64,000 nucleotides of DNA from Anaerocaecibacter muris. Its GTDB lineage: Bacteria > Bacillota > Clostridia > Christensenellales > Pumilibacteraceae. Positions 10,555-50,818 of the stretch are shown here, piece by piece. The notes under the pieces are model-generated. The model saw only the letters and a list, made by a program, of their open reading frames with translations, searched no databases and had not been told where the DNA came from. The stretch covers positions 248,001-312,000 of the forward strand of contig NZ_CALPCE010000002.1 in NCBI RefSeq assembly GCF_943192945.1, given 5' to 3'. The translations under genes and the position numbers were made by a program. Numbering within the stretch: position 1 is the stretch's first letter; each line of letters opens with the position of its first letter.

Positions 10555-13500
10555 ATGAAAAAACTCGGTCTAATCAGAAAATTCGGACTTACCGCGACGG
10601 TTGTAATGCTTTGTTTGGCGATGATGCTTACTTTCTTTGTGTTCGCGGTTCCTCCCGTTGCGTCGCCGTTTGCCGAAACTACGGGAACGGGCGCAAGCGT
10701 CAGCAAGAGCGAAGTTCTCAAAGGCGTTAATATCAAAAACACTTGCGATTACGGCGATATGTTCGACGTTCCCGCGGTAGCAGGTGCAACCGTTACGGTT
10801 ACCGCGCCCGATAACGCGCCCGTCGAAGTTGTAAACAATAAGGTAACGGCTTTGCAGGTCGGTAATTATAAAGTTACCTATACTCAAAACGGACTTTCTT
10901 ACGATTTTTACGTGCGCGTAACGCTCGACGAGGAATTTTTCCTTAAAGTAGACGATAACGGCGCGGATATTCCCACGTATATCAAAAACGACGGAAATAT
11001 CGTGCTCCCGCTCGCGCGCGTGGTGTATTACGACGACAACAATATTCTTCAAGAATACGACGGCGACTACACCGTTATCGCTTCCACTTCCAGAAACACC
11101 GCGACGTATAATGTTAAAAAGGGCACGGACGAGGCGACAAACCCCGCTGCCGCGGACAGAACGGTGCAACTCGACGGCACCAACGGACAGCTTTTTATCA
11201 CTTATACGGCAAAGCTCGGCGCGACTGGCACCAAGCATTTCAGCAAGATTTTCAACGTTAAAGTTCAATCCGGCGTAAACAACACGGGCAACCCGACCCT
11301 TTCCGTTTCGGGCGTTCAAAAAGACGTTTCTATCAACCGTGCGGTTACGCTCCCCAAAGCGACTGCGACCGACAGTTACGACGACAACGTTAAAATCGAA
11401 ATAAAAGTTCTCGACCCGCACGGCAACCCCGTTAAAAACGTCGATATCGACGAAAACGGTTACGCTTACCGCAAGGAAGGCAAGACCTATACCGACGTTA
11501 CGTTTGACAACGACAAATCCATGACGTTCTATCCCATGGAAACGGGCGACTACAAAATTTCGTACACCGCTTACAGCGACGCGTGGACCGGTTCCGGCAA
11601 CGTCGGCAAATCGAGTACTCGCGAATATTCCATGACGGTGTCCGACCTTGTCGCGCCCGTATTCAAATCCGTGGAAGACTGGCGTATCCCCGAAACGTGG
11701 GGCAAGACCGTTTACAAACGCGGCGAAAACGGCAAGGAAGAGGCAACTCAACTCGGCAATAAAATTCACTTCACCGTTCCCGAAGTCGTAGATAACGACC
11801 CCGAAAGCCCTATAACCGTTTACTTCCGTATTACCGATTCGGACAACTCCAAAACGGTTATCGAGTTCACTAATATCTTGGCGGACGACAACGATTCGGC
11901 AAGCAAGTATGTTGCGAGCGACAAGAGCTCGTACAAAGCGGACGCGACGTTCAGCACCGAAAACGGCTTTGACTTCAACTTCGACGATTATCGCAAAGTA
12001 GACCCCAAAGACCCGAACGGCGCGGAACTCGACCGCGTGGGCACGTATACGGTTTTGTACCGTGCGCGCGATAAGGCTAACAACACGTCTTCCAAGACGT
12101 TCACCATCCAGTTGCAGGAAAAATACACGGACACGGCGGAACCGACCACTGCGGAAATCACCGCGCCCAACTATATTTCCGATAAAGACGAAACTTTGAC
12201 GGTGCCTCATCCCGACTATGCGGATGCTTCCGACACCCGTCCGCTCGTCGATTACAGACTGTACACCGACGCGACGCTCGGCGAAGGCGACGTGCGTTAC
12301 CTCGACGTCACCGGCGGCGACGTTGCGGATATAGAGGGCGGCTACCTTGTATTCAACAAGGGCAAGACCGACAGAAAAGGCGTCTCCCTCGAAAAGAAAT
12401 TGAAGATAGGCGAAAACCTGTACTTCTATATCGCAGTTACCGATAAAGTCGGCAACTACAAAACCAATGTAAAAGACAACGTCAAAATTGCGGCGTCCGA
12501 CGCGACCGAGGCTTACAAAAATATCGAATCGGTAGTAAAAGTAATAGCGTCCGACGCGCAGTCTGCGTTCATCTTTAAAGGCGACAGCATGACGTTCTCC
12601 AACGCCAACCCCAACAAACAGGCGGGCGACGCGCTTGTTGCGGGCGACAGCGTTGTTGCCGACGGGTTCAGCATTGTTACCGCCAACAAGGATATGCGCA
12701 AGTATACCGGCTTTGAAGTTGCGGTCTATAATCCGAAAGGTCAGCCCATCAACGCGACGCTCGAAACGTACACCGTTCCCGGCAAGACGACCGACGAAAT
12801 TTTTGTAAAGAACATTAAATTCCACGCTTCCTCTACCACGCAGGTAAAAGGCGAGGACGGCACATGGACGGAGGGTGATAAGCCCTATTATATGACCGTT
12901 CGTGTGTTCGACGTAAACGGCAACAACGAAGTTTACGGCTATAAGCTCGGTAACGTTGCGCCTTCTCCCGACGATCTTATTCACGGCTCCGCCATCAATA
13001 CGATCGGCTCGACGGGCGACGTAAACGTAACATACAAACTGCACAACGAAACGGTTGAAGCAAACGGCACTGCGGGCGATTCGCTCTATGTCGTTCGCAA
13101 GATAAGCGGCATGGCGTTCAGCCTTATGGGTTCCGAATTCACCGCCAAAAAGCAAGGCTCTTACAATGTCCAAGACGGCTATATCTTTAAGACCGATTAC
13201 GATAACGGCGGATACAGCTATGACAAAGTTAAGTTTGTCGGTTTGAGCGAAGGCAATTACAGCTTTAAGATTAAAGATACTTCCGCGCCCGTATTCGAGG
13301 TGCAGGGCGTAATGCCGACATACTGGGCAAAATACGACGCGACCAGCGAGGAAACCATAGCCAACACTACGGTTAAACTCCCGAAAGTCGTTGCCTATAC
13401 CGAAAACGGCATTGCCGACGTAGAACTTGAAATAACCTACAACAACGAAAAAGTAGATTACGACAAGGAAACCAATACGTTCAAGGGCGTTAAGGACGGC

Positions 13501-14016
13501 GCGTATAAACTCAAATATACGGCAACTGCCGCCAATGCGAAAACTGCCGACGCCGAATATACCATCAATATCGGCGACGTACAGGGCCCCGAATTCACTT
13601 TGAGCGGCGGCACTTCCACTACCGCTACCATGAAAGTGGGCGACACGTTTACGTTTGCTGCCATGAAGCTCGTCGAGGACGAAAACGGCGTTCAGATAAC
13701 CAAAAAGCTGTACGATCCTTCGCACGAGGAAGTCACCGACGCAACCGTCAGCGGCTCCATGACCAGCAAAGGCGACGCCAAGAACAACGGTACGACCATC
13801 ACGTTCAGCATGGCGGGCACTTACGAAGTCGTGTACACCGCTACCGATTCCAACAACAACCCCACCACGCAACGCTTTACCATTACGGTAGTCAGCAGCG
13901 GTTCGAGCACTCCCACCACTTGGACGACTTTGTCCACCGTGCTTATCGTTGTGGCGATAGTCTTGCTCGCGGGCGTTATAGTGTACGTTGTGCGCTTCCG
14001 CAAAGTTAAGAAATAA
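10555..14016 (+). CDS. Large membrane-anchored surface protein with Ig/cadherin-like modules
   Basis: A 1153-residue exported protein. Residues about 12-40 form a signal peptide or first membrane segment (hydrophobic VVMLCLAMMLTFFVFAV). The body is beta-rich, Asp/Thr/Lys-rich and repetitive, with several module borders marked by patterns such as DLVAPVFKSVEDW, KDTSAPVFEVQGV and DVQGPEFTLSGG, typical of tandem bacterial Ig-like or cadherin-like domains. A single C-terminal membrane helix (LSTVLIVVAIVLLAGVIVYVV, about 1124-1144) followed by a basic RFRKVKK tail anchors it; there is no LPxTG. ATG 10555 is preceded by AGGAG at a slightly long spacing. A strong terminator ends the unit, so it is likely monocistronic. 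The ligand is unknown. Confidence 0.82.
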   Translation: MKKLGLIRKFGLTATVVMLCLAMMLTFFVFAVPPVASPFAETTGTGASVSKSEVLKGVNIKNTCDYGDMFDVPAVAGATVTVTAPDNAPVEVVNNKVTALQVGNYKVTYTQNGLSYDFYVRVTLDEEFFLKVDDNGADIPTYIKNDGNIVLPLARVVYYDDNNILQEYDGDYTVIASTSRNTATYNVKKGTDEATNPAAADRTVQLDGTNGQLFITYTAKLGATGTKHFSKIFNVKVQSGVNNTGNPTLSVSGVQKDVSINRAVTLPKATATDSYDDNVKIEIKVLDPHGNPVKNVDIDENGYAYRKEGKTYTDVTFDNDKSMTFYPMETGDYKISYTAYSDAWTGSGNVGKSSTREYSMTVSDLVAPVFKSVEDWRIPETWGKTVYKRGENGKEEATQLGNKIHFTVPEVVDNDPESPITVYFRITDSDNSKTVIEFTNILADDNDSASKYVASDKSSYKADATFSTENGFDFNFDDYRKVDPKDPNGAELDRVGTYTVLYRARDKANNTSSKTFTIQLQEKYTDTAEPTTAEITAPNYISDKDETLTVPHPDYADASDTRPLVDYRLYTDATLGEGDVRYLDVTGGDVADIEGGYLVFNKGKTDRKGVSLEKKLKIGENLYFYIAVTDKVGNYKTNVKDNVKIAASDATEAYKNIESVVKVIASDAQSAFIFKGDSMTFSNANPNKQAGDALVAGDSVVADGFSIVTANKDMRKYTGFEVAVYNPKGQPINATLETYTVPGKTTDEIFVKNIKFHASSTTQVKGEDGTWTEGDKPYYMTVRVFDVNGNNEVYGYKLGNVAPSPDDLIHGSAINTIGSTGDVNVTYKLHNETVEANGTAGDSLYVVRKISGMAFSLMGSEFTAKKQGSYNVQDGYIFKTDYDNGGYSYDKVKFVGLSEGNYSFKIKDTSAPVFEVQGVMPTYWAKYDATSEETIANTTVKLPKVVAYTENGIADVELEITYNNEKVDYDKETNTFKGVKDGAYKLKYTATAANAKTADAEYTINIGDVQGPEFTLSGGTSTTATMKVGDTFTFAAMKLVEDENGVQITKKLYDPSHEEVTDATVSGSMTSKGDAKNNGTTITFSMAGTYEVVYTATDSNNNPTTQRFTITVVSSGSSTPTTWTTLSTVLIVVAIVLLAGVIVYVVRFRKVKK

Positions 14017-14350: not shown

Positions 14351-16396
14351 ATGGAAAATGTAAGGTATAATATTTCGCCCTGTACAGACAGCGAAGTAAC
14401 GACGTTTATCGGCAAGATAGACGGGAACGAGTATGTTCCGAACGGCGCGGTTAAATCGACCGAGCGTTCGCATTATGACAGATATTCTTTTTTATGCAAC
14501 GATAACCGCGTTGCTGTCGTTTACGACACAACCGCGCACATATTGTCTATAACGGGACGTCAGGACTATGCGGAACGGCTGTTAAACTTGTTCGGCGCGG
14601 AACAAAAATCGGTCAAGCGTTCGACGGTGCCCGCGCAGGGCAGTGTGCCCGTAAAACATGCGGACAAAAAGCCGTTCGAGCCTACCGAAATTATCCGACG
14701 CGGAAGCGGCGGCGAGGCGGGCAAGCGCGCTAAACTTTTTGTAGAGCCCGACCGTCTTATTCGTCGAAGCGAGTTTAAACCCGTTGCGACGGTGTTCGCT
14801 TCGTCCAAAGGCGCGGTAATTTCCACTGACGAAATTTATCCGCCGCAGACCGTTCATAGAAAACCGCCCGCAGAGCGTAAGCCTGCCGACGAATTTGACG
14901 GCGACGTTATATATCCGCCGCAACGCGTGCAAAAGCGACCTTTGCCGTCTTACGGCGAAAAACCCGTCGCGCCCGTTGCGCCTGCGTCGCAACAACCGAC
15001 ATATAACTATCAGGCGCCGCCGCGCTTTAACTCGGCAATGACGGAGCACGGTTCGGACAATGCCAAGTCCGTCGGCATATCAATATCGGTGGGCGGCAGA
15101 ACGCCGAGCGCATTGCCGCGCCGTGCAACCATATCGTTCGGGTCGGACGACGAGGGAGGAACGAACGAAAGCTCGTTTAGAATAAATACGCGCGTACAAA
15201 GCGATTTTAGGCAAAATGTCGCGGTAAATGTCGGCGCACAGAGCGGAGACGGTCAGCAAGGACAGCAAAAACGCAAGCGCGGCAGACCGCCCAAAGCAAA
15301 AGCGCAAAACGACTATGTAGGCGGTATTGCGCCCGTACAGACGGTAAACGCGCCGCAGTCGCAGTCCGTGCAATACGGTAGTGCGAATAATTATTCGGGC
15401 AATAACGGCGCAAACAACGTCGGCGCGCAAAACGGCGACGGTCAGCAGGGTCAACAAAAGCGCAAGCGCGGCAGACCGCCCAAAAACAAACCGCAAAACG
15501 ATTATGTAAACGTCGCGCAGGGCACGACGGACAATCAATCGGACAAAAACGGACAATCGGAAAAATCGGTGCCCGAATATAAAAACGGTTATTCCGTAAA
15601 GAACTTTCCGATAGACTCGCTTAACGGCGCAATCAAGCGGTTGCGGTCTTACGGCAAGACTGTGCTTGCGGACGGTACGGAGTTTGCGGGCACGCCGCAA
15701 GAGGTTAAGACGTACAGCGTGACCGACGCGGCGGGGCAAAAAGTCGTACTGCGTTACGCGACCAAGCGCATGACGTTACAGTTGCAGGGCAAGCGTTCGG
15801 AGTTGTTCGGCGAGGTGCTGTCGCAAGTCAGTTACGATTCGGACTATTCGTCCGCGCTCGAAAATTATATCGACAACTCGGGCGGAGATAAAAAAGTTTC
15901 GGACGTGCAAAACAAGCTGAAACGGCGATTGCCTACGGCGTTCGAGTTTTTGTCGGAACAGTCGAGGATAGATTTTTCTTACGGAATACACGATTTCGAT
16001 CAGTCGGGATTGCAGTTGTCCGATTACTCGGTGTTACTTGTACCCGCGTTCAGAGGGCTGGAACGGTTTGTGTTCGACCTGCAACGCACCGAGGGCATCA
16101 ACGTTAAGATGATAGGTCAAGCATACGACAAGGACGACAACGGCAATTATGTGCTTAAAGGCGGGTACACGCAACGCATTAAAAGCGTTATCTATGCGGA
16201 AGTCATGGTTGCGCTGTACACGGAATATTTTTCGCGGCGCAACTTCTTTGCGCACTCGGACAATACCGACAACAATGTTTCGCGTTCCATACCCGACAGG
16301 GATACGGCAAAAAAGATATTCGACGGGCTGCTTGACGTTGTGGAATACAACGCCAAAAAGCTCAAAGAAATAGGCTTTAAAATAGTCAAACAGTAA
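14351..16396 (+). CDS. AT-hook protein with RnlA/RNase LS-like HEPN ribonuclease domain
   Basis: A 681-residue protein with no signal peptide. Residues 1-80 and about 425-495 each look like a TBP-like repeat (patterns AVVYDTTAHILSITG and RMTLQLQGKRSELFGEVL), the fold found in the N-terminal parts of the toxin RnlA (RNase LS). Residues about 100-410 are a low-complexity linker with two near-identical 29-residue blocks, 63 residues apart, each carrying an AT-hook core RGRPPK (307-315 and 370-378). The C-terminal domain (about 510-681) resembles the RnlA catalytic domain: SDYSVLLVPAFRGLE, then the HEPN motif R630-NFFA-H635 (R-x4-H), followed by a helical end. Predicted role: an endoribonuclease, perhaps DNA-associated through the AT-hooks. 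No RnlB-like antitoxin is seen; a CTP-synthase paralogue follows. The RnlA relation is from remembered motifs and needs a profile search. Confidence 0.62.
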   Translation: MENVRYNISPCTDSEVTTFIGKIDGNEYVPNGAVKSTERSHYDRYSFLCNDNRVAVVYDTTAHILSITGRQDYAERLLNLFGAEQKSVKRSTVPAQGSVPVKHADKKPFEPTEIIRRGSGGEAGKRAKLFVEPDRLIRRSEFKPVATVFASSKGAVISTDEIYPPQTVHRKPPAERKPADEFDGDVIYPPQRVQKRPLPSYGEKPVAPVAPASQQPTYNYQAPPRFNSAMTEHGSDNAKSVGISISVGGRTPSALPRRATISFGSDDEGGTNESSFRINTRVQSDFRQNVAVNVGAQSGDGQQGQQKRKRGRPPKAKAQNDYVGGIAPVQTVNAPQSQSVQYGSANNYSGNNGANNVGAQNGDGQQGQQKRKRGRPPKNKPQNDYVNVAQGTTDNQSDKNGQSEKSVPEYKNGYSVKNFPIDSLNGAIKRLRSYGKTVLADGTEFAGTPQEVKTYSVTDAAGQKVVLRYATKRMTLQLQGKRSELFGEVLSQVSYDSDYSSALENYIDNSGGDKKVSDVQNKLKRRLPTAFEFLSEQSRIDFSYGIHDFDQSGLQLSDYSVLLVPAFRGLERFVFDLQRTEGINVKMIGQAYDKDDNGNYVLKGGYTQRIKSVIYAEVMVALYTEYFSRRNFFAHSDNTDNNVSRSIPDRDTAKKIFDGLLDVVEYNAKKLKEIGFKIVKQ

Positions 16397-16439: not shown

Positions 16440-16471
16440 AGGAGGACAAGCGTTACGCTTTAAACGTTATG
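16440..16471 (+). promoter_or_regulatory. Ribosome binding site with a hairpin before the start codon
   Basis: AGGAGG (16440-16445) is 23 nt from ATG 16469, too far by normal rules. AAGCG-TTA-CGCTT (16448-16460) lies between and could fold so that the effective spacing becomes about 10 nt. No in-frame start codon lies closer to the site. Confidence 0.45.
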
Positions 16472-18034
16472 TCAAAGTACATTTTTGTTACCGGCGGTGT
16501 TGTGTCGGGATTGGGCAAGGGAATAACCGCCGCAAGCATGGCAATGCTTATAAAGGCGCAGGGCTACACGGTTGATATGATCAAGTTCGACCCGTACTTC
16601 AACGTCGATTCGCTGTATTTAAGTCCGTATCAGCACGGCGAAGTTTTTGTCACCGACGACGGCGGCGAGGGCGATTTGGTTTTGGGGCATTACGAACGGT
16701 TTTTGGATCAGAACCTGTCCGAAAACAGCAACATCACGAGCGGCAAGATTTATTCCGCCGTTATTCGCAGAGAGCGTGACGGCGCGTATGACGGCGAGTC
16801 CGTTCAGGTAGTACCGCACATCACCGACGAAATCAAGCGCACGCTGTACACGCTAAACCGTCCCGAAACGGACGTCGTCGTGTGCGAGATCGGCGGCGTT
16901 GTAGGCGATATAGAAAACCACCCTTATCTCGAAGCGATACGTCAGTGCCGCGGCGAGCTGGGCAAAGGCAATGCCGTGTACATACACGTTACCTATGTTC
17001 CTGTTATCGAAATGAGCGGCGAGCATAAAACCAAGCCTACGCAAAACTCCGTTAAGGAACTGCAAAATATCGGTATTCAGCCCGATATTATCGTCTGCCG
17101 TTCAGATTATCAGCTCGACGACGCGGCTAAAAAGAAGCTGTCGCTGTTCTGTAACGTGGAGCGCAACGGCATAATAGAAAGCGTCACAACGGACAACCTG
17201 TATCAAGTGCCGTTAAGACTGCACGAACAGAACTTTGAAGGCGTTGCTCTTAATAAGTTGAAAATGGAAGAGCGCGAGCCGAAACTCGACGCATGGCGCG
17301 ACATGTGCGCGCGCGCCGAAGCCGCGCAAAATTCGGACAAGAAATTGCGCGTTGCCGTCGTCGGCAAGTACGTGGAAAAAGTGACCGCGTATCAGTCCGT
17401 GACCGACGCTATAACCACAGCGGGTCTGCTTAAAAACGAGGCTGTCGAAATATCGCTAGTGTCGAGCGCGGATGTAGAAAACGACCCCGCAGTCCTCGAC
17501 GGGTTCGACGGTATACTGATTGCGTCGGGCTTCGGCGTGCGCGGGTTCGACGGCAAGATAGCCGCAGCTAAATACGCGCGGGAAAAAGACGTGCCGTGCC
17601 TGCTCATAGGCTTGGGCGCGCAAGCGGGGCTTATAGAGTTTGCGCGCGACGTGTGCAACATGACGGGTGCGAACACGCAAGAGTTCGACGATAAAACGCC
17701 TTACGGCGTGGTGTGCAGTATCGACCCGCCCATGCTCAAAAAAGGCGCGTTCCCGACGGTGATAACCCCCGGCACGTATTTGAGCCGCATTTACGGCGCG
17801 CAGACGGTAAGCGAACGTCATCGCCATCGCTTTGATTTTTCGGCGACATACGAACAGCTTTTCTTGCGCAACGGGCTTGTATTTTCGGCGCACTCGCCGA
17901 CGGGCGTGCCCGAAGCGTTTGAAATCCCCACAAACAAGTTCTTTATCGGCACGGTGTACAATCCCGAATACCGTTCGCGGTTGTTGAGCACGCACCCGCT
18001 GTTCGCGGAATTTATCAAGGTAATCAGCAAATAA
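16469..18034 (+). CDS. CTP synthase paralogue lacking glutaminase catalytic residues (probable pseudoenzyme)
   Basis: A 521-residue PyrG homologue with an N-terminal synthetase domain (P-loop [10 protein letters not shown], residues 9-18) and a C-terminal class I glutamine amidotransferase domain. Compared with the normal PyrG at 49184-50818 the nucleophile Cys is Gly381 (IGLGAQ instead of ICLGMQ), the triad His is Asn498 (YNPEY instead of YHPEF), the oxyanion GGFG is SGFG, the GGTMRLG lid is missing, and the Asp equivalent to E. coli Asp72, which binds Mg, is Val71. PGTMSP at the substrate site is SLYLSP. ERHRHR and KTKPTQ are kept. It should not use glutamine and may not make CTP. It lies 72 nt after the HEPN gene with no terminator between, so cotranscription is likely. 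It may bind nucleotides or form filaments or heteromers with PyrG; all inference. Confidence 0.85.
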   Translation: MSKYIFVTGGVVSGLGKGITAASMAMLIKAQGYTVDMIKFDPYFNVDSLYLSPYQHGEVFVTDDGGEGDLVLGHYERFLDQNLSENSNITSGKIYSAVIRRERDGAYDGESVQVVPHITDEIKRTLYTLNRPETDVVVCEIGGVVGDIENHPYLEAIRQCRGELGKGNAVYIHVTYVPVIEMSGEHKTKPTQNSVKELQNIGIQPDIIVCRSDYQLDDAAKKKLSLFCNVERNGIIESVTTDNLYQVPLRLHEQNFEGVALNKLKMEEREPKLDAWRDMCARAEAAQNSDKKLRVAVVGKYVEKVTAYQSVTDAITTAGLLKNEAVEISLVSSADVENDPAVLDGFDGILIASGFGVRGFDGKIAAAKYAREKDVPCLLIGLGAQAGLIEFARDVCNMTGANTQEFDDKTPYGVVCSIDPPMLKKGAFPTVITPGTYLSRIYGAQTVSERHRHRFDFSATYEQLFLRNGLVFSAHSPTGVPEAFEIPTNKFFIGTVYNPEYRSRLLSTHPLFAEFIKVISK

Positions 18035-27491: not shown

Positions 27492-30400
27492 ATGAGTAAG
27501 AACAAAGCTAAAACGAAAGCCGAAAACAGGGCGAAGCGGTTACTGATAGCGATAGTAAGCGCGTTTATAGCCATAGCCATAGGCGCGACGTGCGCGCTGT
27601 GGTTCGGCAATTCGGCTAAACCCGTTAGCGTAAACGGTGCGACGGGCGACGTTACCGCGTCGGCTAACCGCGGCGCGTTGACGGGCAACCAGTCGGGCTG
27701 GAATTCGAGCGGCGTTCCGCTTATCGCAGAAGGCGATATGATGGAATATACATACAACGGCGGACGGCGCAGTATAACATTGCCCAAAGGAACTTATAAG
27801 TTTGAAGTTTGGGGCGCGCAAGGCGGCGGCGGTTATCAAAACGGCGTGTTTAGCGCGGGCGTCGGTCTCGGCGGATATTCGCAGGCGCAGTTTACTCTCA
27901 AAGCGGCTACAACCGTTTATATAGTCGTAGGCGGCGTCGGCGCTAACGGTAAGCTCGGCGTTTACGGCGCTAATTCTTGGGCGGCGGGCGGCTACAACGG
28001 CGGCGGCAACTCCGGTAAAGAAATGAACTCCGACGCGAACGACGAAGGCGGCGGCGGCGGCGGCGCTACGCATATCGCGCTTGCCGACGGCGTGCTTTCC
28101 GCATTAAGCAGCGCGGCTAACCAAAAAACCGTTATGATAGTTGCCGGCGGCGGCGGCGGTACTTCGTTTACTCGTGCGGCGGGTAAAGGGTACGGCGGCG
28201 GTACTACCGGCGGAACAGGCTATGGCGGAAGCCGCGCGTCCACAGGCGGCACGCAGTCGCAAGGCGGCGTCGGCGGTACTCACGGCGAAGGCACTGACGC
28301 TTACGGCAGAAACGGCGGCTTCGGGCAGGGCGGCGCAGGCGGTAACGGTACTTCCGGCGGCGGCGGCGGCGGCGGCGGCTGGTACGGCGGCGCGGGCGGT
28401 CCTTGCGGAAGCGTAGGCGGCGGCGGTTCGGGCTTTATCAGAACTTCCGGATTTTCCAACGGAAACGTTGTTTTGGCAAATTCCGGCGGCATGCAGAACG
28501 GCAAACGTTCGGGGCACGGGCTTGCTCGCATAACCGCGGTTAAGCTCAACGACAATCCCGTAACAATCAATTCCAACGGAACTACTCCCAAGATTTACGA
28601 AGTAAACAACGCCAATTATTATAAAGGTGCAAGCAAGTCGCTTGTAATCAAGTCGAGCGAAATCGCGCGCGATCCCGACCCTGCAAACGTAAAGAACGGC
28701 AACGCCAATCAAGTTTATTTCTCGCAAGGCGCGTCTAACAGGGACACTGCGCCCGCGAATAACAACCACTTATACCTCAATTCGGCATGCACGACGCTCG
28801 CGTCCAACTATTTTTCGTGGACGTGGTCGGGCGGAACGGCGTGTCAAACTCTTACGATTACGGAAATAAAACGCTATCCGCGCAAAGGCGTGGACGGCTG
28901 TACGACGGACGGCGTTATAACGCTTTACGCCCGCGTGCGCGATAATTATTACAGTAATACCAAGCGCGGATTATCGGTTATACCGTTCCAAATTCGCGTG
29001 CGCGATAATGCTATAACCAATAAAGGCGACGGTTTTTTACGTTTTTCCAAAACGGGTTACGAATACCGTTACGGCAATCGCACAATGACGTCGGGCGGTT
29101 CGACGTACAATTTTGCGGCGGCTAACAACACGCAGATTTATAACCCCGTCGCGAGCTTGGCGTCGAATATTAAAACGTTGTTTATATCTACGCCGCTCAC
29201 CCCGACCGACACGGCGGGCTTTACGGTGTACGCTTCCGATATTTATACCGACGCGGATAACCATTCGACTTACGGCGACTATGTAGCTATCAAGAGCGTT
29301 GCGGCTTACACCGGATATACGGGGTATTCGAGCTATTATTCGATTACTTATAATTCCAATGCAAGTTATGCCTCGGGCTTGGTGCCGTCGTTTACAATCA
29401 AGCCGACGGGCGTAAGACCCAACGGTCCTATTTTCGTGTGCATGACCATAACGGCGCAGACCAGCGAAAAACACTCCAAAGCGGCGATAGGCGGGACTAA
29501 TTCAAACGTCATGCTTGTGTTCCAGATAGCGAACACGCGCCCGTATTTTGCTACGACGTCGGGCAAGGGCAAGAACTTTGCGGAACCGTATATCGAGCTG
29601 AATTTGAATACCAAAAGAACGCAAACGCTCGATATAAGCGAAATCGTATTCGACACCGACGACGCAAAGTCCGCTAATAAACTTACTTTTGCGCGCGGCG
29701 CAAACGACCTTAAAATCCCGACCAACGAGTATATTCAGGTAAACAGAGTAAACGCCGCAGTGCCGTTGTTGCAGACTTACAACAGCAAAACGAGCAACTA
29801 TTACGGCAAAACGAGCGTACAGACGTCGGGCACGCTTTCGTCGGCGAGCGGCGAGGGCACTACCTCGACGGGCTTTAAAAAGGATTTGATAGCGCAAGCG
29901 GGCAGTTCCGGCGCGACTTACGCCAACGTCACTTACAGTTACGACGGCGATAAAAAGATAACGTTTACCGCGCGTTCGGCAACGCAGTATCAGTACGATA
30001 CGGCGGGACGACTGGGCGACTTTTATATCCTTGTTCGCATAATCGACGCAACCGACACGACGGACGGCGGGCTTTGGTATCCCGTGGCGGTCAAAGTAAA
30101 TTCCGCCGCGCCGGTCGAGCCGTCCACGGTCGCAAACTTCTCGCTTAACTTCGATCGCTTTAAAGCGGATAGCGAAACGCAGGAGAAAGAAAACGGCATT
30201 ATTCTTACGCCTATAAGCTATACCGACGAAAACGGCGTATTACAGGGCATAGGTTCGCTGTCCACTGAATATTCGAACGATGCGAGCCATACCGCGCTCC
30301 CGTTCGTTGTAGACCCCGATACGTTTATGTACGACGGGGAAAACGTAAATAAAAAGACGCACGCGCTAAACGATATAATTATGCTTGCGGGCGTAAACAG

Positions 30401-33400
30401 AAACGATTCGACGGACTTGTCCAAAGTCGTCGAACTGTTCGGCACGTCCGAATTCTTTACCGTCGAGCTTGTGGACTTGTACGCGTCCAAAACCGTGTTC
30501 TCGCGCTTGGAAATGTACGACAACGACGCATTGCTTTCGGCATGGGGCGTAGAGAAGTTTACGGGCAACGGTTCGGAAAACGGCTTTAAGTTTAAAGGAC
30601 TTAAAATCGTGCCGCGCCGCTCGACGGACGACACTTATTTGCAATTCAACGTAAACGTTAAAGACTCGCACGATCAAACTTCCAAAGTGCGCGTATGTAT
30701 TAACGTTCGCAATAGGGAAGTACAGCTCCGCAACAGCCCTAACGGTTCGTCGATGTTCAAGATTAACACGATGGCGGGGTACGGCACGTATCTCGACGCG
30801 GACAGCAGCGGTATAGGCGTTGCGACCGTCAATTACGAAATAGAAATCGGCGACGAAATTCAGATCACGCCTTACGACTTTGCGTATGACTACGACGTCG
30901 ATCCCGAAAACGTCAAGCTCAACAACCCCGTCAACAACACCAACCCCGTTGACGCAGGTTTCGACGCGGCGGCTGCTTTCATACTCGCGTCGTATAATAT
31001 TCCGCACACTACTTCGCCGACCGCGCCCGCGGGCGTGAACGACGCGACGAGTTTTGTCGGTCAGCAACTGCGTTTTGTCAATATAGACAACTTCAACGCT
31101 TCGGCGTCGCAATATGCGTCCTATATTTCGGCGCGCGTTGCGGATAAAACCGTTGTAAAACCGCCCAAAAACAGCGGCGGACAGGAACGCGAGTACGCGA
31201 TACCGTGCATTAAGATCGAGGGTCTTTCGCGCACGACATCGGCTGTCGTTATGTTGCGTTTCACGATAGGCGACGGCTATTCCAATCAGGAAGTAATGAT
31301 AACGGTCACGGTCAAAAACTCCAAGCCTATGCTCAATACGGAGGAAAACCACCCCAAGACCAATCCTAACGACAAGCGCATAACCATGCCGTACAACCTT
31401 TCCGCCGACCCTGCGAACGCGGTTAATATCATAGACTTCGACGTTAAGGAAGCGGCTTACGACAAAGACGGCGACACGCTTACTTTCAAACCCAACAGCG
31501 TTAAGGTCGTGGCTTACGACGAAAACGGCGAAGAACAATTCGACGCGGACGGCAAAAGACTTTACTATTACGACGCGCTCGACGCTAACTTCAAGGGCGT
31601 TCCGTCCACATCTGCCGACGCGGTGTATTTGCTTTCCGATTACGTCGAAGCGACGCTCACCAAAAACGGCAGCGGCGTGGACGTGGTGCGCGTAAAGGGC
31701 TTGTCGTCCACCGAATTGTTTAATAAACAGATTTTCGTACAGTTCACAGTACAGGACGGGTACAGAGCGCAGCCGCAGGAAGCGGACTTGCGCATACTTA
31801 TCAACGTTGTAAACTCCGCGCCCGTAATGGTTACGGACGGTCTTGCCGAAGTGCAAAAAACAGAAGACGGCGTGACCAAATCCGAATATACGTGGCTTAT
31901 CGGCTACGAAGATATTGCGGAAACCAAGCTGTCGCGGTTTATCGTGAACAGCAAAGAACTTTGCGAATCGTCCGCTATTAACGTGTCGTCCGATAATAAG
32001 ATTTGGTTGTTTGACGATGCGGACGCGCAACAACGCGTATTGCTCGACCCGCAGGGCGGTTGGAACCTCAACGGCAACTGGGCGGCGGATTTGATCAAAA
32101 AACAGACGCTCGATACTCCGATCACACAGGAAACGTTTGCGCTTACCCAAAATGCGCACGCCGCTATTATTTACGGTAAAACGTATTCCGGAGACGACGC
32201 CGATAAACAGCACCTTGAACTGACACTGCATTTTTACTATAAAGACAAAGACGGTTTTAATATAATAGAAAATACCAGCGAAAACATAAAGACGGCTAAA
32301 TATTGGGCGTTGGAAATTAAAGACGTAGTCAACAAAACGAACGCCGCCGCCGCGCAGATAGCTATTGCCGTCAAGGACGATCATCACGGCAAGAATTTGT
32401 ACAACGCCGAAAAGACGGAAACGTTTACCCGCGATTCTTCGTTCCGCGTGCTTAACTTCTCTTACGGATACAAGCAACCCGGAATAATGAATATGCACAC
32501 TTATTACCGCACCGACGGCAATGCGGAAGCCAAAGTAAAGCTCGATCCCGCAGACGATAGCAAGGGTTATCAGGTCGATCTTAAAGGATTTTACAAAGGC
32601 GGATATTCGTATCAGTTTGTAAAAGGCTCGCATGTTCCCACTACGCAAGAGGAACTTCAAATGGCATCGTTCACTCCGCGCTTCAAGTATCAGTATTTTG
32701 TTAAAACGCAGATAGACGGCGACTCTTCTACTGCCACTTATAAGCATTATCCAGAAGAGGCGAGCGCGTTCTATTACGAGCCTATCGAAGTGACGGGCGC
32801 GTTAAGCGGTAAAGTGGACTTCCCTATAAGCTATCTTGCAATGCCGCAGGGCAGTACCGCCGCAACGGAGGGTAGCACGCACGTAACGTTTGCCAACGCT
32901 ACGCAAGGCGCGCTTAACGCGAATAATAAATTGTCAGACGACGACTATTATAAGTGGTGTGCGAAAGATAATCCAAACCGCGAGCAAAACCTCGAATATA
33001 TACTCGAAAACGTGACGGTTTCCGACGGCAAAACTACTTACACCGCCAAGGATAACCCTTACTTGAACATCGAGTACATTGCGGATCGCAAATTTATTAA
33101 CAGTAAATACCGCAATACCCACCGTTACAGTTTGAGTAGCGGCGGCTTTAAAGCAATAGACGTAAACGACTCTAACGGCAACAGCATTTACCGCGAGGAT
33201 AAATTCGGTTTCCGTTTGTCCAAGAAAGAAAACGGTCCGCGCGCCGCGGGCATGCTCAAGCTGTCCGTTGCGCTCAAAACGACTGCCATTGTAGTCGAAA
33301 ACGGAATAGAGCAAGTCAAAGAGGGCGCGACCGAAATTGTGGACGTGGAAATCAACCTCCAAAACTCTGCGCCTAAAATTTATTACAACGATATTCAAGC

Positions 33401-36400
33401 GACGGGCATGATAGACAATCTTAACGTCGAAATGACCACTGCCGACGTAAACGGCAAGACTGTCGGTATTAACCACATTTCGCTTAAATCGTCCGAAAAA
33501 GCGATAGGCGATTACAAGATTTATTACGAAGATCCCGATAAATCGGATACCATGAAGTTCTATCTGCCGTCCGCGTTCGGCAAGATGTCTGCTGCGGAAG
33601 TAGATCATATTGCGAGCGGAACCAACCATGCTACGCAGTCTAATCCCGTTACGGAATACTTTAACGGCACGGCGGATAAATACACTTACAATCCAAATGT
33701 CGGTTACGAAAAGTTCTTCGACGTATTGCCGAGCGAGGGTTCGGCGGCGACGTTGCAGTTTGTGCCCAAAGCAAAAACGCAACCCAACCTCGCCGTCGGT
33801 TCGACGGAGTTTGAACAGTATGTCAGGGATAACCACCTCGCATACGACGCAAACGATCCGACCAAAAAATTATACTATCCGTTCCGCGTGCTGTTCTACG
33901 ACGAAGTTTCGGGCACGCCGTTCACCGACGGATACTGGTGTCTTGCTATCATAAAAGTGTATATCAATAACGATCCGATCCGCGTCAATTCGACAGCAAT
34001 CGGCGACAATGTTTATATACACGACAACGTTAAATATCCCAACTACACGTTTAAACTGTCCAAAGCGACGAGCTTCTACCTTGACGTGTCGTCGTTGCTT
34101 GTGGATAACGATATAGTTCTTAACGGCACGTCCATGGCTGTCGAGACGGACGACGCATGGAAGAAAGCCGATCAAAAGGTCAAGGACTACCTTGTAATGC
34201 CCGACCCGACTTTGACTTCGACTAACGTCATAGCAAAGCCGAGTAGCATAACGACGTTGCCTATAACCGTCGCCAAGGGCGGCACAGGCTTGACCGACAC
34301 GACGTTGGTATTTAACGCTACGTGCGCGTTTAAGGGCGATATAGTAATCAAATACACGTTTGCCGACAGCGTAAAAGAGCTTACGGGCAACGGCGGTTCG
34401 TCTGTCACTATCGTCTTTACCGTACAGTACAACAACGAAAATCCCACCGCCAACAACGATACTTTCGGCGGCGGCAGTTCCATGAACATCGTCATGAAGC
34501 AGGGCGACAGCATAACGCTTTATGCGTCCGATTCGACTTTGTTTGCGAACGACGCAAACGGCGGCTTTAAGTCTTACGGCTTGTTAAAGCAGAACGCGAC
34601 GGACAGAGTGTCGTTCCCGTTCGGCAAGACCGAACAGTCCGCACAGCAAATGCTTGACGACTTTAACGGTAAGCAAGCGGGCGACGGCGATCTCGGTTCG
34701 CTCGTTATCGGCGGCGACGACGCGCCTACAACGCTTCGGTTCAGCTCGTATGACGACGCTACGTCGTTTAAGCAGTCCAATGTGGACGACAGACGGTTCT
34801 TCGATATTGTTGTACCCAACGGCGCAATGTTTGAACGCGAAAACAGCGCGCAGAGAAGCCCCGTTGCCGTTACGCTCACTGCCAAAGGCGTAGTAAACAC
34901 GATATACTCGCTCGAACTTATCGACGGCGAGGGTAGTACCGTAAGAATTTCCATCAACATCAACGTGCAGTCGAGCGCGCCGCGAGTAAAGACGGGCGAA
35001 GGCGACGAGACGTTGCCCAAAGGTTTGACGCTCGATAAAACCGCGCAAACCCCGACGTTTATATACGAAATGTCTTACGGCGAGAGCAGAGAATTCTTGC
35101 TTAAAGACTTTATGCACGACGACGACTTGGACGACGCCAACGAGTTTAAGATCGCCGAAAACGCAGATAAAACCAAGTTCACCATAGTGGGCGGTTCGCT
35201 CGGCGCGGAAGCGACGGGGTCGCAGTACGACGCGAGTATTACGCTCAATGCGCTCGACGTGATTACCGATAAGAGCGATTATGCCACGGTGTCGTTCCGC
35301 GTGGAGGACGCGCACGGCGTTACTTCGGAAATAATAACGATTAAAGTGTTGTTAACACCCTCCGAAGTAAGCGTTGTTGCGACCGAAAGAGCGCCTTATG
35401 CGACGACGCTTAAAAGCTATGCCGAATACATCGACGACGGAGAACCCGTAACAGTCGACCTTGTAAGCGCGGTTTCCGCCGTGTTGTTCAAGGACGCGGA
35501 CGCGCCCGCCGCTTCTGCGAAGTACGACGTTGCGGTTTACGCGTTGTTGAGAAAGGACGATAAAGGCGTTATTAACGCAATCAGTTCCAGCCAGCTCATC
35601 GATCCGACTACCAACGATTACGATACAAAGAGCTTGATCTTGACGTTGACAGATTCTACAATCCGTACCGAGAGCAACGACATTGCGGCGTATGTTGCGC
35701 GGTATTTCAGAATTACTATCAGCGCCGACGGCAAGCAACTTATACTCACGCCCAATTCGGCAACTATTCAGGCGGGCACGCCCAACCTCAAAAATATTCG
35801 ATTGCTTATCACGCTCGCAAAGCGTTACAAGGACGGAACTTTGTCCACGCTTCCGCGCAACGTTGGATTTGCCGATATTGCGGTCAAGAATTCCGAGCTC
35901 GTCGCGGTGGAAAGCTCGCCTATAAACTACGGCTATCCCGAAATAAAAGTAGGCGAAACCGAAACGCGCAGACGCGAGCAGGGCTTCCTTGAATTTACGG
36001 GCACCGCAGGCGATTCGCTCACGTGGGACTTGTACAATATTCTCGATCCCGAACTCGGCTTGTTCTACGATTACGACATGATCAATTATCCTGCGGAAAG
36101 CGGCGGTTTGGAGAAGATCCGCTATGTCCGCAGTGAGTACAGCGTCAGCGAGAGCTCGCAACACGTTCAGGGCAAAGGCAACGTGCTGTCCATTGACGTG
36201 ACCGAGGACGGCAAGCTCACTATCAAGATTAACCGCAAGGTGTACAGAGGCGAGCCGCCCGTTGACGGGTTAAAAGATTCGTATACCGAAATCCCCGTTA
36301 AGATCTACTGCGCGGACGCGATCGGGTTCAGCTATAACGAAAAGCGTTGCGTTGCGACGGAAATCAAAGTGCGCGTCGATAACGACATACCCGAAATAAA

Positions 36401-43977: not shown

Positions 43978-45072
43978 ATGGAAAGATACCTGATTATGAA
44001 AGACGGAACCGTTTTTACCGGTCAAGCCATAGGCGCAAGCGGCACGGTTATGGGCGAGGCGGTTTTTACGACCGCAATGTGCGGATATTTATTGACATTG
44101 AGCGATCCCAGCTATTACGGTCAAATAATAACGCAGACTTTTCCGCTTATAGGCAATTACGGCGCAATCGAATCGGATGCGGAAAGCGACAGACCCTATT
44201 TGTTCGGCTATATCGTGCGCGAGCTGTGCGAAGTCGGATCCAATTACCGCAAGGAGAGCGAACTCGACGATTATCTTAAAAAGCACAATATCGTCGGCAT
44301 ATCGGGCGTGGACACGCGCGCGCTTACGCGCAAAATACGCAATATGGGCGTTATGAACGCCATGATCACCGACAGTCTTAAAGACCTGCCGCAAAAGATA
44401 GCCGCGCTTAAAAAGTACAAGGTTGCGGGCGCGGTGGAAAAAACGTCGTGCACGGAAGCGGAAGAACTCAACCCGATAGACGAAACGCACAAGTACAGGG
44501 TTGTGCTGTACGACTTCGGCGCAAAGCGCAATATCGAGCGCATGCTTATAAAGTACGGTTGCAGCGTCGTGCGCGTGCCGTACAACACCACGGCGGAACA
44601 GGCGCTCTCTTACAAGCCCGACGGCATTATGCTGTCCAACGGCGGCGGCGACCCTGCGGACAACGTCGAGGTTATAAATCAGCTTAAAAAGCTCAACGAA
44701 AAACGTTTGCCCACGTTCGGAATTTGCCTCGGGCATCAGCTTTTGGCGCTGTCGTTCGGCGCGAAAACCACCAAGCTCAAATACGGACACCGCGGCGGCA
44801 ATCAACCCGTCAAGGATTTGGAAACGGGCAAGACCTACATAACAAGTCAAAATCATGGCTATGCGGTCAAGGCGGACAGCCTCGACCCGTCGGTCGGCAA
44901 AGTCAGGTTTATAAACGCAAACGACAAAACGGTCGAGGGTATAGATTATACGTGCGCGCCCGCATTCTCGGTGCAGTTCCACCCCGAAGCGTGCGGCGGA
45001 CCAAAGGACACGGAGCTTTTGTTCGCTCGGTTTGTCAAGCTCATGGAGGAAAACGGAAATGCCCAAAGATAA
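43978..45072 (+). CDS. carA: Carbamoyl-phosphate synthase small subunit
   Basis: CarA hydrolyses glutamine and feeds ammonia to CarB for carbamoyl phosphate, used in pyrimidine and arginine synthesis. The 364-residue protein has the N-terminal CPS domain (DGTVFTGQAIGA) and a C-terminal class I glutaminase with nucleophile Cys250 in GICLGHQ, the VQFHPEA histidine/glutamate pair, and SQNHGYAV. ATG 43978 follows AGAGGTGG. Its stop overlaps the carB start by 14 nt, giving tight translational coupling. Confidence 0.96.
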   Translation: MERYLIMKDGTVFTGQAIGASGTVMGEAVFTTAMCGYLLTLSDPSYYGQIITQTFPLIGNYGAIESDAESDRPYLFGYIVRELCEVGSNYRKESELDDYLKKHNIVGISGVDTRALTRKIRNMGVMNAMITDSLKDLPQKIAALKKYKVAGAVEKTSCTEAEELNPIDETHKYRVVLYDFGAKRNIERMLIKYGCSVVRVPYNTTAEQALSYKPDGIMLSNGGGDPADNVEVINQLKKLNEKRLPTFGICLGHQLLALSFGAKTTKLKYGHRGGNQPVKDLETGKTYITSQNHGYAVKADSLDPSVGKVRFINANDKTVEGIDYTCAPAFSVQFHPEACGGPKDTELLFARFVKLMEENGNAQR

Positions 45073-49183: not shown

Positions 49184-50818
49184 ATGGAAAAATATATTTT
49201 CGTTACGGGCGGCGTCGTGTCGGGCTTGGGCAAGGGCATAACGGCGGCGAGCCTCGGACTTATTCTCAAATCCAAAGGGCTTAAAGTAATAGCGCAAAAG
49301 CTCGATCCGTACATCAACGTTGACCCCGGGACAATGAGTCCCTATCAGCACGGCGAAGTTTTCGTCACGGAGGACGGCGCGGAAACCGACCTCGACCTCG
49401 GACATTACGAGCGGTTTATCGACGAAAATCTTAACAAGTTTTCCAACCTTACCACGGGCAAGGTTTATTCGACCGTGCTTCAAAACGAGCGCGACGGCGT
49501 GTATAACGGCGAAACAGTGCAGGTTATTCCGCACATCACCAACCAGATAAAAAAGTTTATCTATTCGGTCGGCAAAAAGATAGAAGCGGACGTTGTAATA
49601 ACGGAAATAGGCGGCACGGTGGGCGATATAGAGAGCTTGCCGTTTATCGAGGCGATACGTCAGGTGAGCAACGACGTGGGCAGGGAGAACTGTCTGTTCG
49701 TGCACGTCACGCTCGCGCCGACGCTCACGTCCAACGGCGAGGTTAAAACCAAGCCCACGCAACACTCCGTCAAGACGTTGCGCTCGCTCGGCATTTCGCC
49801 CAATCTTGTGGTGTTGCGCACGAGCAAACCCATTGACGACAAGCTCAAAGAAAAACTTGCCATGTCGTGCAATGTAGAGCCCGACTGCGTTATAGAAAAC
49901 CGAGACGCGGATTTGCTGTACGAAGTTCCGCTGTTGCTGTTGGACAGCGGCATAGGCGATATTGTAACGCGCGAACTCAACCTGCCCGACAATCCGCCGC
50001 AGCTCGACGACTGGCGCGCCATGGTGGAAATGGCGAAGAAGCGCGAGGGCGTTGTGACTATCGCGCTTGTCGGAAAATACGTTCAAATGTTCGACGCGTA
50101 TTTGTCTGTCGTGGAAGCGCTCACGCACGGCGGAATACACAACGGCGTTAAGATCGACTTAAAGTGGATAGACGCGGAACGGTTGACGGACAGCACCGTT
50201 GCGAGCTATCTCGACGGCGCGGACGGCGTTATAGTTCCCGGCGGGTTCGGCGACAGGGGTATCGAGGGCATGGTTACCGCCGCCAAGTATTGCAGGGAAA
50301 ACAACAAGCCGTATTTCGGCATTTGCTTGGGCATGCAGATAGCGGTTATAGAGTTTGCGCGCAACGTTTTGGGTTATGCCGACGCGACTTCGCGCGAGTT
50401 CGACCCCGCGTCCGCGCACAAAGTAATAGACATCATGGAAGACCAAATCGGGTGCGAAAACACGGGCGGCACAATGCGGCTGGGCGCATATGAGTGTATG
50501 ATTACGCCGAACAGTACGCTCGCTCGGTGTTACGGCGAGGGCGTTACGTCGGTATGGGAACGGCACCGCCACCGTTACGAGTTTAACAACGCGATACGCG
50601 AAGACGCGCAAAACGCGGGGCTTACGCTGTGCGGCATTTCGCCCGACGGCAATCTTGTGGAAGCGGTGGAAGTCACCGATAATCTTTTCCATCTCGGCGT
50701 GCAGTATCACCCCGAATTCAAATCGCGCCCCGCGCGTCCGCAGCCCATATTCCGCGAATTTATAGCGGCGGCAAAAAAGTACGCGACAGCGCGTAAACCC
50801 GCCAAAAAATCAAAGTAA
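49184..50818 (+). CDS. pyrG: CTP synthase
   Basis: PyrG aminates UTP to CTP with glutamine and ATP. The 544-residue protein keeps every expected residue: P-loop [25 protein letters not shown], the metal Asp in [31 protein letters not shown], the oxyanion PGGFG, nucleophile Cys381 (ICLGMQ), GGTMRLG lid, ERHRHRYE and YHPEF with the triad His/Glu. ATG 49184 was chosen with GGAGAA upstream; TTG 49172 would destroy that signal. It is the catalytic counterpart of the degenerate paralogue at 16469. It lies 81 nt after carB-dapF and 96 nt before dapL. Confidence 0.97.

What the first reader, a model, noticed from the sequence alone, without database searches (positions are those of the whole stretch)
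16469..18034. Second CTP synthase that has lost glutaminase Cys and His and a Mg-binding Asp
Aligned by eye with the intact PyrG 31 kb away, the paralogue has Gly381 for the nucleophile Cys, Asn498 for the triad His, Val71 for the Asp72 equivalent, no GGTMRLG lid and a changed PGTM substrate loop, while the P-loop, EIGG, KTKPTQ and ERHRHR remain. The protein is full length with no frame damage, so it seems kept by selection as a pseudoenzyme or a nucleotide-binding protein, not a decaying copy.
Basis: partly seen in the sequence, partly recalled or inferred. Interest (0 to 1): 0.8.

Follow-up and report, generated by a model that had tools for sequence, protein, structure and literature searches.

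The report
Inactive twin of CTP synthase
A group of uncultured Clostridia carries, besides its normal CTP-making enzyme, a long-conserved second copy that has lost its catalytic parts but kept the pocket for UTP and CTP, so it probably controls the working enzyme, or another partner, instead of making CTP.

Summary
Window 16469-18034 encodes a full-length PyrG homologue (PYRG2) beside an intact PyrG1 (49184-50818). It is no lone oddity: 46 PYRG2 rows from one family form one clade (SH-aLRT 100); none has the catalytic Cys or the Mg-binding Asp, though 8 keep the His. In the window's genus dN/dS is 0.066, like PyrG1's 0.068. The UTP/CTP pocket is kept and the synthase domain is far better preserved than the glutaminase domain. 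Two new facts. An RnlA/LsoA-type HEPN RNase gene lies upstream on the same strand in 40 of 40 related loci. And PYRG2 follows the family's native PyrG1: the 17 family genomes without native PyrG1 all lack PYRG2, and 7 independent contrasts include none opposite. Best reading (0.5): a dead CTP-synthase subunit that binds UTP/CTP and tunes native PyrG1 in mixed tetramers. Main rival (0.2): a nucleotide sensor for the adjacent RNase. That RNase gene occurs without PYRG2 in 20 of 65 genomes, so PYRG2 is not its obligatory antitoxin. No complex, binding or activity was tested.

The parts
16469..18034 (+). PYRG2: catalytically degenerate CTP synthase paralogue, 521 aa
   Evidence: clade of 46 rows
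16493..16522 (+). PYRG2 P-loop region (residues 9-18, Lys17 = E. coli Lys18), kept
16610..16621 (+). PYRG2 residues 48-51 SLYL in place of the PGTM loop
16679..16681 (+). Val71 in place of the Mg/ATP ligand Asp72
   Evidence: Val in 45 of 46 rows, Leu in 1; role from PMC8325340 passages
16907..16915 (+). Asp147-Ile148-Glu149, ribose contacts of UTP (D, E), kept
   Evidence: role from PMC8325340 passages
17027..17044 (+). KTKPTQ (187-192), triphosphate contacts of UTP (K-T-K), kept
   Evidence: role from PMC8325340 passages
17609..17611 (+). Gly381 in place of the glutaminase nucleophile Cys379
   Evidence: Gly in 45 of 46 rows, Ser in 1
17960..17962 (+). Asn498 in place of the triad His515 (variable in the clade)
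   Evidence: His in 8 of 46 rows
49184..50818 (+). PyrG1: native canonical CTP synthase, 544 aa, catalytic residues intact
14351..16396 (+). RnlA/LsoA-type HEPN RNase-like gene, 72 nt upstream of PYRG2 on the same strand, 681 aa, two AT-hook-like motifs
   Evidence: upstream of PYRG2 in 40 of 40 related loci
16061..16063 (+). E571 of the predicted HEPN E-R-H triad
16238..16255 (+). R630-x4-H635, HEPN RNase motif
10555..14016 (+). Ig-like repeat protein upstream of the RnlA-like gene; part of the conserved cluster

Best explanation
PYRG2 is a catalytically dead CTP synthase subunit of one bacterial family. Shown here by sequence: it lacks the nucleophile Cys for the known use of glutamine, it lacks the Asp that helps hold Mg-ATP, it keeps the UTP/CTP-binding residues, and it is under purifying selection. 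Inferred: it still binds UTP or CTP, assembles with the family's own PyrG1 into mixed tetramers, whose active sites are shared between subunits, and sets activity or CTP feedback there, as dead paralogues do for trypanosomatid enzymes and as human CTPS2 does for CTPS1. The tie to PyrG1 rests on co-loss; the complex and the direction of regulation are inference.
For: One clade, one origin (SH-aLRT 100). Purifying selection. At 106 synthase-domain sites conserved in other PyrGs PYRG2 keeps 73 at genus-weighted frequency 0.9 or more and loses 9; at 71 linker and glutaminase sites it keeps 20 and loses 19. S14, D147, I148, E149, K187, K189, P190, Q192, K223, also E155 and F227, stand at 1.00 in 43 core PYRG2 rows; D42 and H57 at 0.89. 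Co-loss: of 74 family genomes 57 have, or by genus are taken to have, a native-clade PyrG1, and 46 of these have PYRG2; 17 have a PyrG outside that clade or none, and 0 of 17 have PYRG2. 39 of 46 PYRG2+ genomes have a PyrG1 placed in the tree, all native. Independent pairs on a tree of 52 genomes: 7 contrasts in native PyrG1, PYRG2 same way in 5-7, opposite in 0, p 0.016-0.063; from the PYRG2 side 10 contrasts, 7 same, 0 opposite, 3 without difference, p 0.016. Shared active sites: PMC9138612 passages. Precedents: PMC12442307 section 10; PMC3663545 and PMC5201418, starts of abstracts in listings.
Against: No physical interaction was tested. Native PyrG1 lives without PYRG2 in G033, in the 8 genomes of g2 (7 placed in the tree), in G056 (contig ends about 400 nt past the RnlA-like gene) and in G018 (84% complete), so PYRG2 is dispensable. 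The signature expected if PYRG2 took over duties of PyrG1 is weak: only 3 sites lost in PyrG1 and kept in PYRG2 (I28, R32, A304), plus F227 at 0.60 in PyrG1. Genomes without any PyrG may have lost CTP synthesis as a whole, which would remove any CTP-related gene. In G067 the native-clade copy (L070) is a long branch and itself has Cys379 -> Gln. The grouping of G030's PyrG with other families has SH-aLRT 83 only, though it lies outside the native clade (100). PYRG2 stands beside an RnlA-type gene, not beside pyrG1. The species tree is built from genes of the PYRG2 cluster and holds 52 of 74 genomes.
Confidence: 0.5

Rival explanations
1. PYRG2 is a UTP/CTP sensor for its neighbour, the RnlA/LsoA-type HEPN RNase: nucleotide-bound PYRG2 holds or releases the RNase, coupling pyrimidine level to RNA decay.
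For: RnlA-like gene upstream on the same strand in 40 of 40 related PYRG2 loci (38, 2); gap at most 91 nt in 28 of 31 loci measured (exceptions 223, 347 and 2107 nt), 72 nt in the window. RnlA-type fold match (best 10 PDB hits all LsoA or RnlA, on a model of low overall confidence) and E-R-H intact. PYRG2 keeps the UTP/CTP pocket. Of 46 PYRG2+ genomes only G053, where the contig ends beside PYRG2, gives no RnlA-like match.
Against: The RnlA-like gene occurs without PYRG2 in 20 of the 65 family genomes that have it, and E-R-H is intact in all 18 of these that were fetched, so PYRG2 is not an obligatory antitoxin. In L121 a gap of 2107 nt and in L184 another ORF lie between the two genes. The adjacency is also explained by one insertion into a vertically inherited cluster. 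It does not explain co-loss with native PyrG1.
Confidence: 0.2
2. PYRG2 is still an enzyme with changed chemistry: an ammonia-using, ATP-dependent amidoligase, or a kinase-like step on UTP or a related pyrimidine, with another group holding Mg.
For: Lys18 and Lys40 at 1.00 and Glu140 (Asp in two of nine genera) are kept; the NH3-gate residue His57 at 0.89. Canonical CTPS can use free NH3 (PMC9138612 passages). Glutaminase-dead PyrGs that keep Asp72 exist as the only copy in other lineages.
Against: Asp72 is lost in all 46 rows and the PGT of the loop in all 43 core rows, unlike those single-copy glutaminase-dead PyrGs. A plain NH3-dependent CTP synthase would not be expected to vanish with native PyrG1.
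Confidence: 0.15
3. PYRG2 is a structural partner: it joins PyrG1 polymers (CTPS filaments) and caps or seeds them, without needing its own nucleotide site.
For: CTPS forms filaments in many organisms (PMC4126345 abstract start in the listing; PMC8325340 passages); co-loss with PyrG1 fits as well.
Against: The UTP/CTP pocket would not need such strict conservation; filament-forming surfaces were not tested.
Confidence: 0.1
4. PYRG2 is a decaying duplicate.
For: Faster evolution than PyrG1: mean cross-genus identity 0.685 against 0.827 in the synthase domain, 0.445 against 0.693 in the glutaminase domain; about 10 losses on the tree.
Against: dN/dS 0.066 in the genus, like PyrG1; full length in 19 of 20 genus genomes; one fixed set of changes across 11 genera.
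Confidence: 0.02

Closest known systems
CTP synthase PyrG (Pfam PF06418 + PF00117; TIGR00337)
   Same: Full-length match; P-loop, Lys40, Glu140, UTP/CTP site, ERHRHR. It passes the NCBIfam cut-off of TIGR00337 'glutamine hydrolyzing CTP synthase' (624 against 462.75 bits) and of NF003792 (659 against 308), so automatic annotation by these models would call it an active enzyme.
   Different: No Cys379, no Asp72, PGTM loop and GGTMRLG region gone; a second copy, not in place of PyrG.
Human CTPS1/CTPS2 pair
   Same: Two paralogues in one cell; CTPS2 in CTPS1 complexes lowers activity and raises CTP sensitivity (PMC12442307, abstract and section 10).
   Different: Human CTPS2 is itself active, if weaker; PYRG2 lacks the catalytic residues. 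A mixed complex is not shown here.
Dead-paralogue activators of trypanosomatids (AdoMetDC prozyme, deoxyhypusine synthase)
   Same: Catalytically dead paralogue kept beside an active enzyme; deoxyhypusine synthase works as a heterotetramer with a dead paralogue (PMC5201418, PMC3663545, starts of abstracts in listings).
   Different: Other enzymes and hosts; the complex is proven there and only inferred here.
RnlA/LsoA toxin (RNase LS, HEPN) of RnlAB/LsoAB, for the neighbour gene
   Same: Pfam RnlA-toxin_DBD in 18 of 18 members scanned, R-x4-H, best fold matches RnlA and LsoA. RNase LS HEPN domains with N-terminal TBP-like domains are described (PMC3710099 passages).
   Different: No RnlB found (search uninformative); it is a stable family-wide gene (65 of 74 genomes), and the gene after it is PYRG2 or something unrelated.

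Membership tests
CTP synthase (PyrG), fold family | Full-length synthase plus class-I GATase domains | tested here: met
   (sequence only; the structure model was too poor)
CTP synthase, active glutamine-hydrolysing enzyme | Cys379-His515-Glu517 triad | tested here: not met
   Cys absent in 46 of 46 PYRG2 rows; window has Asn at the His; Glu517 kept
CTP synthase, active enzyme | Mg/ATP ligands Asp72 and Glu140 with Lys18 and Lys40 | tested here: not met
   Asp72 absent in 46 of 46; Lys18, Lys40 kept, Glu140 kept or Asp
CTP synthase, UTP/CTP site | S14, D147-I148-E149, K187-Q192, K223 | tested here: met
   residues only; binding itself not tested
Dead-paralogue regulatory subunit (prozyme-like) | Catalytically dead paralogue under purifying selection | tested here: met
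   (deadness inferred from residues)
Dead-paralogue regulatory subunit (prozyme-like) | Depends on its active paralogue | tested here: inconclusive
   co-absence in 17 of 17 genomes, 7 independent contrasts, p 0.016-0.063; no direct test
Dead-paralogue regulatory subunit (prozyme-like) | Physical complex that changes activity | not testable with these tools
   needs purified proteins
RnlA/LsoA HEPN RNase (neighbour gene) | RnlA-type domain with R-x4-H | tested here: met
   RNase activity not tested
RnlAB-like toxin-antitoxin with PYRG2 as antitoxin | Toxin gene not found without the antitoxin gene | tested here: not met
   RnlA-like gene without PYRG2 in 20 of 65 genomes

The most novel reading that the evidence does not exclude
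PYRG2 is a pyrimidine-nucleotide gauge made from a retired CTP synthase: it reads UTP/CTP with an intact pocket and passes the reading both to native PyrG1 (mixed tetramer) and to the adjacent RnlA-type HEPN RNase, coupling CTP supply to RNA breakdown.
Probability: 0.15. Interest if true: 0.85.

Novelty: new variant of a known kind. Interest (0 to 1): 0.6.

Why it matters
Searches of the held PMC library (no paper; 4 listed; 8 listed of 103) showed, by titles, term counts and abstract starts, no paper on a bacterial CTP synthase pseudoenzyme; that says nothing beyond those searches. CTP synthase subunits share active sites, so a family that has kept a dead copy offers a natural test of how mixed tetramers could tune CTP supply. 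It also exposes a naming problem: TIGR00337 would call this protein an active glutamine-hydrolysing CTP synthase. The constant RnlA-type neighbour makes a link between pyrimidine sensing and a HEPN RNase directly testable.

Tried and rejected
Rejected: decaying copy. Rejected: PYRG2 as obligatory antitoxin of the RnlA-like gene (20 of 65 genomes carry that gene without PYRG2). Weak: the idea that PyrG1 lost what PYRG2 kept (3 sites only). Origin left open: the best tree of 43 rows puts PYRG2 outside most order PyrGs, but a clade of PYRG2 plus native PyrG1 is not rejected (p-AU 0.085); of 14 sites where native PyrG1 is derived PYRG2 leans to the derived state at 2.

Led nowhere: PYRG2 structure model, mean pLDDT 55, not used. 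RnlB search, 0 of 20 genomes, but the control rang nowhere, so uninformative. PADLOC: nothing for the RnlA-like protein, one weak hit (E 0.03) for PYRG2. NCBIfam: nothing for the RnlA-like protein. A first tree script timed out; its concatenated alignment was used with FastTree and quick IQ-TREE. Not followed: second full-length PyrG copies in G105 and G231 of the order sample were not read for residues; outside the family I read 21 of the order's loci.

Rows left out before counts: 3 very divergent PYRG2 rows (L069, L082, L084) and 8 odd outgroup rows in the site tables. G051's PYRG2 is a contig-end fragment, counted as present because the RnlA-like gene lies beside it, not in the trees. Of 46 PYRG2+ genomes 7 have a PyrG1 not placed in the tree (G002, G003, G010, G015, G017, G051, G053), and so has G026 (PYRG2-minus); these are taken as native by genus. 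The tree of 52 genomes leaves out 22 of 74: some without an RnlA-like gene, some whose loci I did not fetch, and six whose fetched loci I did not include (G002, G003, G015, G017, G036, G041). In one search one PyrG1 gene of the genus (G018) stands twice. Residue roles not in the passages, names of cluster genes (glyRS, coaX, hom, purA, ABC, CarB, DapF) and the RnlA numbers E258 and H323 are recalled or read by eye; R318 stands in a PDB title. The E. coli numbers given for UTP contacts were converted from Drosophila numbers by me.

Full report
What is there. The window carries two PyrG homologues: PYRG2 at 16469-18034 (+), 521 aa, and PyrG1 at 49184-50818 (+), 544 aa. A search of the whole genome finds these two only. 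PYRG2 matches CTP_synth_N over its full length (384 bits) and GATase more weakly (60 bits; PyrG1 134 bits).

The residues. Over 46 PYRG2 rows the Cys is never present (45 Gly, 1 Ser), Asp72 never (45 Val, 1 Leu), while His515 remains in 8. In published structures Lys18, Lys40, Asp72 and Glu140 (E. coli numbers) surround ATP and Mg, and Asp42, Asp147, Glu149 and Lys187-Lys189 contact UTP (PMC8325340 passages; UTP contacts converted from Drosophila numbers). In 43 core PYRG2 rows all of these are kept except Asp72, with Glu140 as Asp in two of nine genera and Asp42 at 0.89.

Selection and history. All 46 PYRG2 rows form one side of one branch with SH-aLRT 100 among 111 rows. In the genus 19 of 20 genomes carry it, full length, 77-91% identical to the window's; in the family 46 of 74. 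In a sample of 391 class genomes scanned with a PYRG2 profile, only the window's own copy stands out (957 bits; next best 743); 21 loci outside the family in the order sample all keep Asp72. dN/dS (Nei-Gojobori, near synonymous saturation) in the genus is 0.066 for PYRG2 and 0.068 for PyrG1 (medians of 50 of 190 and 23 of 91 pairs); in g8 0.093 (4 of 10 pairs) and 0.047 (1 of 3); in g7 0.114 (8 of 55) and 0.12 (1 of 3). Of 106 synthase-domain sites conserved elsewhere PYRG2 keeps 73 at 0.9 or more; of 71 linker and glutaminase sites only 20; PyrG1 keeps 100 and 64. Selection thus holds the nucleotide-binding half much harder than the glutaminase half.

The neighbour. The gene 72 nt upstream (14351-16396) is an RnlA/LsoA relative: Pfam RnlA-toxin_DBD (1.3e-6; 18 of 18 family members scanned), profile match to LsoA 5hy3 (7.6e-9), and a model of low overall confidence (mean pLDDT 59.6, good over residues 1-90) whose ten best PDB matches are all LsoA or RnlA. 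Its AT-hooks are by motif (two in the window; one just under the Pfam cut-off). The predicted triad E571, R630, H635 is invariant in 18 aligned rows and in 20 further loci, 18 of them from genomes without PYRG2. The gene lies upstream of PYRG2 on the same strand in 40 of 40 related loci (38, 2), within 91 nt in 28 of 31 measured. It is nearly confined to the family: 65 of 74 family genomes, and 14 of 200 order genomes, 13 of them of the family. Yet 20 of those 65 lack PYRG2; in G033 and G030 the next gene, purA, lies directly beside the RnlA-like gene. So this RNase gene does not need PYRG2.

The tie to PyrG1. A tree of 85 canonical rows shows a native family clade of 50 rows (SH-aLRT 100) that holds the PyrG1 of every PYRG2-bearing genome placed (39 of 46). 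In G030 and G037 the canonical PyrG instead groups with other families' PyrGs (support 83 and 98 for the groups); those of G060, G063, G064, G068, G070, G071, G072 and G073 fall in another clade (98); seven genomes have no PyrG match (G031, G035, G036, G058, G059, G061, G069). With Pfam CTP_synth_N six of these seven give nothing and G036 only a fragment at E 0.88, while 14 of 14 controls ring. None of these 17 genomes has PYRG2, against 46 of the other 57. On a tree of 52 genomes from six concatenated cluster genes, 7 independent contrasts in native PyrG1 agree with PYRG2 in 5-7 cases and oppose it in none (p 0.016-0.063); from the other side 7 of 10 agree, 3 do not differ and none opposes (p 0.016). 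PYRG2 can be absent while native PyrG1 stays (g2, G033, G056, G018), not the reverse in this sample. That asymmetry is what a dependent subunit would show. A weak spot is G067, whose native-clade copy is a long branch with Cys379 -> Gln beside a further, ordinary PyrG.

How it probably works. CTPS tetramers have an active site at the interface of synthase domains, and the L4 loop of an adjacent protomer reaches the GTP site (PMC9138612 passages). A subunit that keeps the UTP/CTP residues but probably cannot phosphorylate UTP or split glutamine could occupy places in a PyrG1 tetramer and set its activity or CTP feedback. Human CTPS2 in CTPS1 complexes lowers activity and raises CTP sensitivity (PMC12442307 section 10), and trypanosomatid enzymes use dead paralogues as subunits (starts of abstracts in listings). 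Shown: sequence, selection, co-absence. Inferred: deadness, nucleotide binding, mixed tetramer, direction of regulation. Confidence 0.5. The main rival, a nucleotide sensor for the RnlA-type RNase, keeps 0.2 because of the constant adjacency, and both could be true.

Limits. No complex, binding or activity was tested. The co-loss sample is one family, partly draft genomes. The species tree uses genes of the same cluster. The origin of PYRG2 inside or before the family is open (p-AU 0.085).

Noticed in passing
window 14351-16396: RnlA/LsoA-type HEPN RNase-like protein as a stable gene of the whole family (65 of 74 genomes), in a conserved cluster (gene names by eye: glyRS, coaX, hom, Ig-like protein), with no RnlB recognised (search uninformative).
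   Followed up: partly
window 45032-49102: One open reading frame of 1356 aa reads, by eye, as carbamoyl-phosphate synthase large subunit (CarB) followed by diaminopimelate epimerase (DapF): an apparent fusion. The CarB end runs in frame into the DapF motif in 7 of 10 genus loci looked at (the window's own genome included); in the other 3 the motif was not found.
   Followed up: partly
L085 (G063), L091 (G072), L062 (G097): PyrG as the only match in its genome with Cys379 -> Gly and His515 -> Gln but Asp72 kept: likely ammonia-dependent CTP synthases, outside the PYRG2 clade. L207 (G073) groups with L091; its residues were not read.
   Followed up: partly
order and class samples: 66 of 200 order genomes and 119 of 391 class genomes give no PyrG match; among those at least 90% complete and at most 5% contaminated 53 of 163 and 82 of 318. 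Of 10 such genomes re-searched with Pfam CTP_synth_N 9 gave nothing and 1 a sub-threshold fragment, with 14 of 14 controls ringing.
   Followed up: partly
L068, L069, L070 (G067): One genome with three PyrG-type genes: an ordinary one of non-native type, a native-clade one with Cys379 -> Gln, and a PYRG2.
   Followed up: no
L118 and L120 (G003): Two different PYRG2 loci in one MAG listed with 7% contamination, probably a mixed bin.
   Followed up: no
window 27492-38540: Giant 3682-aa ORF that looks, by eye, like a surface protein with a C-terminal membrane segment.
   Followed up: no
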